Origin: Fistulifera solaris
Lineage: Eukaryota > Bacillariophyta > Bacillariophyceae > Naviculales > Stauroneidaceae
Assembly: GCA_030295235.1 (NCBI GenBank)
Contig: AP026125.1
Location: 620,001 to 684,000 of the forward strand
Direction of reading: 5' to 3'
DNA length: 64,000 nt
Position numbers and translations under genes: made by a program. The notes under the pieces were generated by a model. That model ran no database searches. It worked only from the letters and a program-made list of their open reading frames with translations, and had not been told where the DNA came from. This document shows positions 32,917-36,705 of this stretch, in pieces (position 1 is the first letter of the stretch; each line of letters starts with the position of its first letter).

Positions 32917-34290
32917 CTATTCCAGCATGGGTGCAGATTGCAATCGATCGCGCTGATAGCTAATATTGTGGCTACCGCATTGAAAACTAGTCACAGCAGC
33001 CGACTGATCCACCAGTCCGTAGCTGTTGAAAAGGCGCCTTGGGCTTCCATCACCAATTGGAGAGAGGATAAGGTCTTCACCGAAGGAATCGGAGTTATCC
33101 TCCATGTTTCCTTGCCGATAGGACTTTTCAACATCCATAGCCATATTTGTATCGGAGTTGCGGCGAACATGCATGATTCGATGTTGACGATGTGGGGAGG
33201 GTGATAAATCAAATCCATCAAAGAACATATCTGGAGCTGAATTGTTCATTTTTTGAAAGACCTCGGCTTGGTTGTCCGCCTCATAGGACCATCCTCCTAA
33301 GTTAGGACAAGAATTGTTGAAGATCGCCGATGAAACAACTTGAGGCGGTTGTACATGCTGAGACTGTTGCTGAAGCTGTTGCCCGATATGGTAGGGCAAT
33401 TGCATCATCTGCGGTGGCTGTGATCGCAACCCGTTCAATTCCACTACTGAACGTGCCGACTGATGACCGACAATGTCAATTGTTGCCTTGGGCCCGCCAA
33501 ATCCTGCCGTTAGCTCTGCATCTAAAGCCCCTAGAAGCGAGTCCTGGAGCGGTTCATAATTTCGAGAATGTACCATGGATGGCTTCCCCATGTGCAGTCC
33601 CGTAGGATCGAAGCTCAACGAACTAGAAGAACCTTGTAGAACAGAGCTATGAGAACTGTGATTTAGAGAGCTGTGCGAGCTGTGATCCAGATAGCCATGA
33701 TCAAGATAGCCCTTTTCACCGTGTTCGGCTTGACGGCGCTTCTTTTTGGCTGTGTTACTAGACTTGTACTGGTCGTGAAGTGCATCTCGGAAAGCCTGAG
33801 AGGTCTTCTCTCGGGCAAGGAAATCGCCAACCTCATACCAGCGACCGCTGGATGAGTCTCGTTTTACAAACCCTCCTTGGGGGCTTCGCTGGCGAACCTC
33901 ACAGACGATATCCGAGAGTATATAGGATTTCTCGAGCTTAGCGGCTGCGTTGGAGTATTCCTCAAGCCGGCTCTCAACCAACTTACGGAAACGTTCGTTC
34001 CCTACATGATTAAATGCTTTACGGCCACCTGTGAAAAGAAGACGGAAAGGTAAGTCACTGTGGAAATACAACTTTTAACAAAGGAAATTTTAACGTACGG
34101 CCGCCTGTGGAAGAAAGATCGAAGGTAAGTAATGTTCACAACAAAGCAAAGGGCACGAGTCATAGACACCATCTAACTTACAAATAACATCCCATTCTCC
34201 CGGAATATAATGTCGGGGCAGGGCCGTCATGTTCTGTCCAGCAACTCCCTGTACTTCGCTTTCACTTTCCGAATCATTTGAGTCGTTCAT
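32917..34290 (-). CDS. DUF6824 protein with a 6-nt microexon
   Basis: The inferred exons on the minus strand are 34290-34182, 34104-34099 and 34028-32917, giving 408 residues. DUF6824 is a diatom-enriched domain of unknown function, often in proteins with nuclear-type low-complexity tails. The domain reads GEWDVI-CGRGRK-AFNHVGNERF, later GGFVKRD...GRWYEVGDFLAREKTSQAFRDAL, then KKKRRQ. Direct joining of the two large exons would give CGRK, lacking two residues of the conserved CGRGK core. A 6-nt exon, GCGGCC, bounded by ag and gt, gives exactly CGRGRK and keeps the frame. The paralogue at 35377-36705 has CGRGKK without an intron. The C-terminal 250 residues are Ser/Gln/His-rich. A regulatory role is plausible but unproven. 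Confidence 0.8.
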
Positions 34291-35376: not shown

Positions 35377-36705
35377 CTATGATGAACCTTGTCTGCCACC
35401 TCCGAGTGGCACGGGCTCGTAGGGATCGTCGGAAAGTTTGTATTCGGTGAGTTTGTCCAGGCACTGAAGAAGCTCCTGATCATCAGGGGACGTCTTCTTC
35501 GATTTGCGAGAGCTTACTCGCTTGCTGGGTCGGCTTGCTACGTCTATTGGTTGAGCACTCAGCAAAGGCGCCCCTGAATTTACCTGTGGTGGCTGACTGC
35601 CAAACTCGGGTTCAAACTCCAATGCAAAGGCTTGACTTGAATGCTGCTGAACAGGTTGTCGCTCGAAACGAGCCTGATTTAAAGTCGAATGTCGAATCGC
35701 TTGCAGTTGCATGTCATACTGCGTCGGAGCCGCGAAGATGCTTTGGTTAGCTTCCGGATTGTAATTGAAATGCATATTCGGAAGAGAGTGGTGCATTTGA
35801 TCACGAAAAGCTGTCGTTGATGCATTCATATCGTAGCGCATATCAGGTAGGGAATTGAAATTTGACGAGCTGTCACCCTCAAACATTAGCTGGAATGGAC
35901 GTTGATTACCCACAAAGGAAGAGGCGCCGGCTAAAAGCTGGTCAGAAACGCTGAAGCTTCGATTGCCAAAAGCATTCAAAGTGTGCGATTCAGCAGGTGA
36001 AGGACCCAAAGGCGGTAGGGCGGAACTTGAATGAAAGCTACCGGGAACAGTGAATGCTGGTGTAATGCTTGAATTCGACTGATTCGTCAACTGCAGTGAT
36101 CGCGGAAAGGGAAGCAAACTCTGTTGTGAATCCATTGCATAGTTCTGCGAGAAAATTCCCGTGGAAAGCTCTATTCGTGGGCGCCTGTCGGTTTCCGAAT
36201 AAGTTTGCATCATTTGAGACCTGTCAGAAAATTTCATCACTTCTTTTCTGCGCTTTTTCTTGGAGACATTACTCGATTTATATCTCTCATGTAGCGCATC
36301 ACGAAACGCTTGCGATGTCTTTTCTCTCGCTAAAAAGTCGCCTACTTCGTACCACCTTCCAGAATCATCTTGTTTCACAAAGCCTCCACCGGGGCTTGCG
36401 CGGCGTACGTCGGCAACAACTCGATTAAGAACGGCGGACTTGTCGAGCTTGGTCTTGGCCCTCGAATATTCGTCGAGGACTTTTTCCACCCTAGATTTGA
36501 ATAGCTCATTCCCTGCATGACTGTAACACTTCTTGCCTCGACCACAAACAACATCTTGTATGGTTGGTTGGAAATCCTCCGCTAGAAAATTTAAGGTTGA
36601 TCCTGATCGCTGTTTCATTGACACGAGAGAATTATTCCGGCTTTGCCCGTCGTGACTTTCTACCTCACTCGCAATTGACGAATCACATGGCTCCGGTCGC
36701 TGCAT
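35377..36705 (-). CDS. DUF6824 protein, intronless paralogue
   Basis: A single uninterrupted frame encodes 442 residues. The domain (residues about 45-155) begins IQDVVCGRGKKCYSHAGNELF and continues with AVLNRVVADVRRASPGGGFVKQD and GRWYEVGDFLAREKTSQAFRDALHERYKSSN, followed by KKKRRKE, a probable nuclear-localisation signal. It is clearly paralogous to 32917-34290: GRWYEVGDFLAREKTSQAFRDAL is identical. The rest is Ser/Gln/Asn-rich, as in transcription regulators, and a basic RPSKRVSSRKSKK stretch lies near the C-terminus. The two genes probably arose by tandem duplication, although the 5' intron structure differs. Function is unknown; regulation of transcription is an inference from composition. 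Confidence 0.85.
   Translation of the reverse strand: MQRPEPCDSSIASEVESHDGQSRNNSLVSMKQRSGSTLNFLAEDFQPTIQDVVCGRGKKCYSHAGNELFKSRVEKVLDEYSRAKTKLDKSAVLNRVVADVRRASPGGGFVKQDDSGRWYEVGDFLAREKTSQAFRDALHERYKSSNVSKKKRRKEVMKFSDRSQMMQTYSETDRRPRIELSTGIFSQNYAMDSQQSLLPFPRSLQLTNQSNSSITPAFTVPGSFHSSSALPPLGPSPAESHTLNAFGNRSFSVSDQLLAGASSFVGNQRPFQLMFEGDSSSNFNSLPDMRYDMNASTTAFRDQMHHSLPNMHFNYNPEANQSIFAAPTQYDMQLQAIRHSTLNQARFERQPVQQHSSQAFALEFEPEFGSQPPQVNSGAPLLSAQPIDVASRPSKRVSSRKSKKTSPDDQELLQCLDKLTEYKLSDDPYEPVPLGGGRQGSS

What the first reader, a model, noticed from the sequence alone, without database searches (positions are those of the whole stretch)
34099..34104. A 6-nt microexon restores the conserved CGRG motif of a DUF6824 gene
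On the minus strand, exon 1 ends DVI+T (34182) and the next large exon starts GTGGCCGTAAAG (34028). Joined directly they give CGRK, two residues short of the family core. A GCGGCC block between ag and gt yields CGRGRK in frame. The neighbouring paralogue has CGRGKK without interruption, which supports the reading. Two-codon exons are rare, and none is easily found by gene predictors.
Basis: partly seen in the sequence, partly recalled or inferred. Interest (0 to 1): 0.78.

Follow-up and report, generated by a model that had tools for sequence, protein, structure and literature searches.

The report
Six-base microexon in a diatom gene
In what appears to be the oil-rich diatom Fistulifera solaris, a gene of unknown function seems to carry an exon only six bases long that supplies two residues of its family's conserved core; both subgenome copies have it, but no RNA data were available to confirm it.

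Summary
In detail: GCGGCC at 34104-34099 (-) lies between AG and GTACGT, with introns of 77 and 70 nt. Inclusion gives ICGRGRK; skipping gives in-frame ICGRK; the three retention cases tested give stops. The genome is most likely Fistulifera solaris (a published primer and a guide target match exactly). The homoeologous gene on contig C6 has the identical microexon and splice dinucleotides, although its introns differ at 16/77 and 5/68 bases plus indels. Eleven of eleven closest orthologues without the interruption read ICGRGRK. Dinucleotide shuffles restore it in 23 of 200,000. P0001, 98% identical, reads through the same arrangement, apparently with a synonymous TGC-to-TGT change (decoded by hand). 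Close orthologues that seem intron-free suggest both introns are recent gains, not proven. In 50 paralogous loci read (a biased sample) this stretch is often split by an intron, and one pair carries a candidate stwintron. The microexon is very probably real and constitutive, without RNA evidence. It is a new member of a known kind; interest lies in its probable recent origin inside an invariant motif.

The parts
34182..34290 (-). Exon 1: ATG to ...GATGTTATTT (109 nt, ends in phase 1 of the Cys codon)
   Evidence: Translation and orthologue N-termini with AGQNMTALP-like strings; homoeologue 5/109 substitutions
34105..34181 (-). Intron 1, 77 nt, GTAAGT...CCACAG; branch-site-like CTTAC at 34129-34125
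   Evidence: homoeologue 78 nt, 16/77 substitutions, 1 gap column
34099..34104 (-). Microexon GCGGCC (two bases of the Cys codon, Gly, first base of the Arg codon)
   Evidence: identical in homoeologue L002
34029..34098 (-). Intron 2, 70 nt, GTACGT...TTCACAG; branch-site-like CTTAC at 34054-34050; about 32 bases identical between homoeologues (about 34071-34040)
   Evidence: 5/68 substitutions, lowest of 13 intron pairs examined
32917..34028 (-). Exon 3: rest of the DUF6824 domain and C-terminal part, to the TAG stop
35377..36705 (-). Neighbouring tandem paralogue, one open frame, CGRGKK uninterrupted
   Evidence: (L003)

Best explanation
This is a DUF6824 gene whose mRNA is made from three coding exons, the middle one being the 6-nt exon GCGGCC at 34104-34099. 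Shown by sequence: GT..AG ends and a branch-site-like CTTAC in both introns, reading frame, an intact family core only if the block is included, and presence in both subgenome copies. Inferred: constitutive inclusion, by intron definition. Each flanking intron (77 and 70 nt) is close to the 78-nt median of 22 introns of this family, so the spliceosome can recognise the introns and not the exon. Removing one intron first fuses the six bases to a large exon, so no tiny exon has to be held between two spliceosomes. Skipping would remove two residues from the CGRG core without shifting the frame. Also inferred: both introns were gained in the F. solaris lineage, in a stretch of the DUF6824 coding sequence that often carries introns.
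For: Coordinates, frame and alternatives. Identical microexon and splice sites in homoeologue L002, whose introns are 78 and 68 nt with 16/77 and 5/68 substitutions and non-triplet indels, so the flanks are not coding. 118 of 120 listed homologues of the first search, and 192 of 214 over both searches, have the spacing xGRG or xARG-x5-x-x-GN; none of the 214 shows CGRK-xxx-H-x-GN (106 further hits were not listed). Chance restoration 23 of 200,000. Pfam 98.5 v 88.1 bits. P0001 (98% identical over 90% of the query) carries RRWPYVK...HSDLLFVFFSTGGRKAF, i.e. ?TGGCC followed by GTA-like donor bases upstream of the same exon 3: compatible with the same arrangement with TGC changed to TGT, synonymous (decoded by hand). 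Intron lengths. Species: an apt primer of PMC13276009 matches once and a guide target twice, exactly.
Against: No RNA read or annotated gene model was available; among the proteins listed by two searches none was a spliced F. solaris product. Six unchanged bases are weak evidence alone: at the pooled intronic rate (21/145) about 39% of 6-base stretches would be unchanged. GCGGCCGTA resembles the start of exon 3 (GTGGCCGTA), and both introns share CTTACCTT, so a dead duplicate is conceivable. Pfam still matches without the microexon. P0192 has shorter spacing after CGRG, so spacing is not absolutely fixed. The branch-site-like pattern used is loose and was present in 19 of 22 family introns, not in all.
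Confidence: 0.92

Rival explanations
1. The 153 bases between 34182 and 34028 are one intron; the protein is CGRK, two residues short, and GCGGCC is a chance or relict sequence.
For: The join is in frame and Pfam still matches. AG-N6-GT alone occurs in 25% of shuffles.
Against: No CGRK-xxx-H-x-GN form among 214 listed homologues. The homoeologue keeps the microexon and its splice sites. 153 nt is longer than 20 of 22 family introns measured, and it contains two donor, branch-like and acceptor sets. Chance restoration 23 of 200,000.
Confidence: 0.04
2. The microexon is a regulated cassette: cells make CGRGRK and CGRK forms, and skipping switches off the CGRG core without a frameshift.
For: Six bases, so skipping keeps the frame. 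Intron 2 is the most conserved of 13 intron pairs (5/68 substitutions, 32-base identical run) and changes less than fourfold sites (34/153; Fisher p = 0.007), as expected if it carried splicing signals.
Against: No isoform data. One conserved intron of two, noticed after the fact. R-G is invariant in the 96 homologues aligned (P0001 and P0110, which lack the motif, were among the 24 of 120 left out), which suggests that the short form would be non-functional.
Confidence: 0.1
3. The two introns are copies of one another (tandem duplication of intron plus GYGGCC), and the microexon is a by-product that is now spliced in.
For: CTTACCTT occurs in both introns in both homoeologues, and CTTAC in none of 22 other family introns. 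Pyrimidine tract, CAG and G(C/T)GGCCGTA recur at both acceptors. Ancestral CGRGR can be written as tandem GTGGCC units (inference).
Against: The local alignment score between the introns is 13 (12 in C6), while intron 1 scores 14 and 13 against unrelated family introns, so overall likeness is not above background.
Confidence: 0.2

Closest known systems
Plant small coding microexons (1-15 nt; e.g. 1-nt APC11 and VPS55; PMC8831610, abstract and passages seen)
   Same: Tiny exon within a conserved protein motif, easily missed by annotation, merged into a larger exon in relatives without the introns
   Different: By that paper 35 of 45 plant clusters are shared with moss and have RNA-seq support; this one looks recent, is in a diatom, and has no RNA support
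Animal microexons (a 6-nt neural microexon is mentioned in PMC8831610; the 6-nt ME18 in Drosophila UGP in PMC8042270; passages seen)
   Same: Two-codon exon, skipping keeps the frame
   Different: Those named are alternatively spliced; here nothing is known of regulation
Stwintrons (spliceosomal twin introns; PMC6616335, abstract and outline seen)
   Same: Two introns nearly on top of each other
   Different: Here each intron has signals of its own and six coding bases remain; the family's C3/C4 paralogues (L043/L044) fit a donor-disrupted stwintron instead

Membership tests
Coding microexon (15 nt or less) | Exon of 15 nt or less flanked by two introns with GT..AG ends | tested here: met
   6 nt; GTAAGT..CAG and GTACGT..CAG
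Coding microexon (15 nt or less) | Inclusion gives the conserved protein | tested here: met
   ICGRGRK, as in 11 of 11 of P0002-P0012
Coding microexon (15 nt or less) | Conserved in another lineage | tested here: met
   Homoeologue L002 identical; P0001 compatible (decoded by hand)
Coding microexon (15 nt or less) | Present in mature mRNA | not testable with these tools
   No RNA reads held; protein searches listed no spliced F. solaris product
DUF6824 (PF20710) | Score above the Pfam gathering cut-off (27 bits) over the whole model | tested here: met
   98.5 bits, profile 1-84 of 84, with the first 159 residues of the spliced protein
Stwintron at the window locus | One intron interrupts a splice element of the other | tested here: not met
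   Both introns have donor, branch-like and acceptor elements of their own, and GCGGCC lies between them

The most novel reading that the evidence does not exclude
Two introns gained recently, six bases apart, cut the invariant CGRG core of a diatom DUF6824 protein into a skippable two-codon exon. Its in-frame skipping, steered by the unusually conserved intron 2, acts as an on/off switch of the domain. The CGRG..GN coding stretch of this family would be a hotspot where diatoms keep gaining introns, yielding microexons and stwintrons.
Probability: 0.1. Interest if true: 0.72.

Novelty: new member of a known kind. Interest (0 to 1): 0.42.

Why it matters
Six-base exons are hard for gene finders, so part of an invariant motif, or the N-terminus, may be lost from the annotation of both subgenome copies. 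Three searches of the held library (microexon with diatom: one paper; micro-exon with Phaeodactylum and splicing: none; microexon with stramenopile: two papers) listed nothing that by title and abstract start deals with a diatom microexon. If the introns are recent gains, the gene is a datable case of how a microexon is born. F. solaris can be edited with Cas9 RNPs (PMC13276009, passages seen), so skipping and splicing order could be tested directly.

Full report
Observation. On the minus strand, exon 1 (34290-34182) ends ...GATGTTATTT, a 77-nt GTAAGT..CCACAG stretch follows, then GCGGCC (34104-34099), then a 70-nt GTACGT..TTCACAG stretch, then GTGGCCGTAAAG from 34028. Inclusion gives ICGRGRK, skipping ICGRK in frame, and the three retention cases tested run into stops. 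In 200,000 dinucleotide shuffles of the 153 bases an AG-N6-GT appeared in 25%, but one restoring ICGRGRK in 23.

Species and second copy. The window lies in a 51.7-Mb assembly (61 contigs) in which many family members come in near-identical pairs on two contigs. A locus-specific apt primer from PMC13276009 matches exactly once (C39), and an apt guide target matches exactly on C38 and C39 (sequences seen). The organism is therefore most likely the allodiploid diatom Fistulifera solaris. The homoeologous gene on C6 (L002) has the same six bases, the same AG and GTACGT, and the same encoded residues at this place. Its introns are 78 and 68 nt with 16/77 and 5/68 substitutions; fourfold sites differ at 34/153. 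The indels (one gap column in intron 1, two in intron 2) are not multiples of three, so the flanks do not code.

Homologues. The first protein search gave 226 hits, of which 120 were listed; 118 of these 120 have the spacing RG-x5-x-x-GN. The other two are P0001, which reads through this very stretch, and P0110, which starts later. Over both searches 192 of 214 listed proteins have the spacing. Most of the 22 exceptions lack the N-terminal part, P0187 and P0192 diverge, and none shows CGRK-xxx-H-x-GN. P0002-P0012, 11 of 11, hold ICGRGRK. R41 and G42 are invariant in an alignment of 96 of the 120 (P0001 and P0110 left out). Skipping would thus remove part of an invariant core, though Pfam would still match (88.1 v 98.5 bits).

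P0001. This JGI-sourced protein, 98% identical over 90% of the query, begins in what would be intron 1 and reads ...RRWPYVKYAWIENLCLHSDLLFVFFSTGGRKAF. Trp-Pro-Tyr-Val is TGGCCNTAYGTN, so the bases before the presumed donor are ?TGGCC. If the preceding Arg codon is AGG and the Pro codon CCG, this is AG|GTGGCC|GTAC: the microexon with TGC changed to TGT, a synonymous change. This is decoded by hand from protein and stays an inference.

Age of the introns. The database seems to hold raw reading frames: P0001, P0006 (a 21-residue in-frame insert) and P0110 look like intron read-through. P0002-P0005 (80-89% identical, covering 99-100% of the query) are unbroken here, so their genes very likely lack both introns. 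P0003 and P0093 are both listed with a longest contig of 3,933 bases, and P0093 matches the window's neighbouring paralogue at 67%, which suggests one genomic contig. For the lgn entries (P0002, P0004, P0005) a transcript origin cannot be excluded. The tree puts P0002-P0005 beside the F. solaris copies with more distant unbroken orthologues outside, but does not resolve C5, C6 and P0001 as one clade, and its change count was 2. Gain in the F. solaris lineage is the simplest reading.

Family context. One search listed 88 matches in the genome; I read 50 loci (the 30 best, and 20 chosen mainly because the match was partial or began late, so the sample is biased). In 23 of 50 the motif segment was not found uninterrupted; L005/L006, counted there as uninterrupted, are also split in the Arg codon. 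Read by eye, introns fall in the Arg codon in L008/L010, L035/L049, L036/L037, L047/L050 (phase 2) and L038/L048 (phase 1, as intron 2 here). At this motif only L001/L002 showed a microexon; other parts of the genes were not checked. Of 23 introns that I specified, 22 were extracted (L032 missed); their median length is 78 nt, range 62-180. A loose YTNAY branch pattern 15-50 bases from the end is present in 19 of 22; CTTAC is in none of the 22, while CTTACCTT is in introns 1 and 2 of both homoeologues, a hint that the two introns may be related although their overall alignment is not above background.

Constraint on intron 2. Of 13 pairs taken as homoeologous (11 introns, counting introns 1 and 2, plus the inner and outer parts of the candidate stwintron), intron 2 has the lowest substitution rate (0.074; others 0.104-0.312) and the longest identical run (32 bases; next 26). 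It differs from fourfold sites at Fisher p = 0.007 and from intron 1 at p = 0.03. This was noticed after the fact and is a lead.

Mechanism. Most likely both introns are recognised by intron definition and leave in sequence, which fuses the six bases to a large exon before the second step. This rests on intron length and general knowledge of splicing; the order is unknown. The function of DUF6824 remains unknown: no paper in the library holds the name, and no solved structure was found at a telling level.

Literature. Searches listed three papers in all, none of which by title and abstract start deals with a diatom microexon. Other microexon searches list mainly animal, plant and some fungal or streptophyte-algal work. 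Seen: passages of PMC8831610, PMC8042270, PMC13276009 and PMC5935921, and the abstract and outline of PMC6616335.

Verdict. Very probably a real and constitutive six-base exon; a new member of a known kind with a clear comparative case and an open question about its birth and any regulation.

Noticed in passing
L043 (G000:C3:2477431-2479667) and L044 (G000:C4:2341563-2343793): Candidate donor-disrupted stwintron in a DUF6824 paralogue, in both copies: CATCATCC|gta[gtaagt...ccgcag, 75/78 nt]agtt...gcag|GGG. Removing the inner intron builds an outer GTAAGT donor (72/71 nt) and gives NHHPGNEWYRR; the inner donor with the final acceptor gives a stop. Direct use of the weak outer GTAGTA donor would give the same protein. 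Most of the ten papers holding 'stwintron' in the library have titles on fungi; none names diatoms in its title.
   Followed up: partly
window 34071-34040 (-): About 32 bases of intron 2 are identical between homoeologues, the longest run in 13 intron pairs; they include the branch-like CTTAC and an upstream CCACAG.
   Followed up: partly
P0002 model, residues 31-149: DUF6824 is predicted with high confidence as a mostly helical domain with two short strands; no telling PDB match by fold or sequence was found.
   Followed up: partly
C-terminal part of exon 3 (-): Besides the domain, the orthologues aligned share short motifs near SCPN and SPIGDGS that may be interaction sites.
   Followed up: no
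P0006 and P0110: P0006 has an apparent in-frame intron read-through between WYEVG and DFLAREK; P0110's homology starts at the same place.
   Followed up: no
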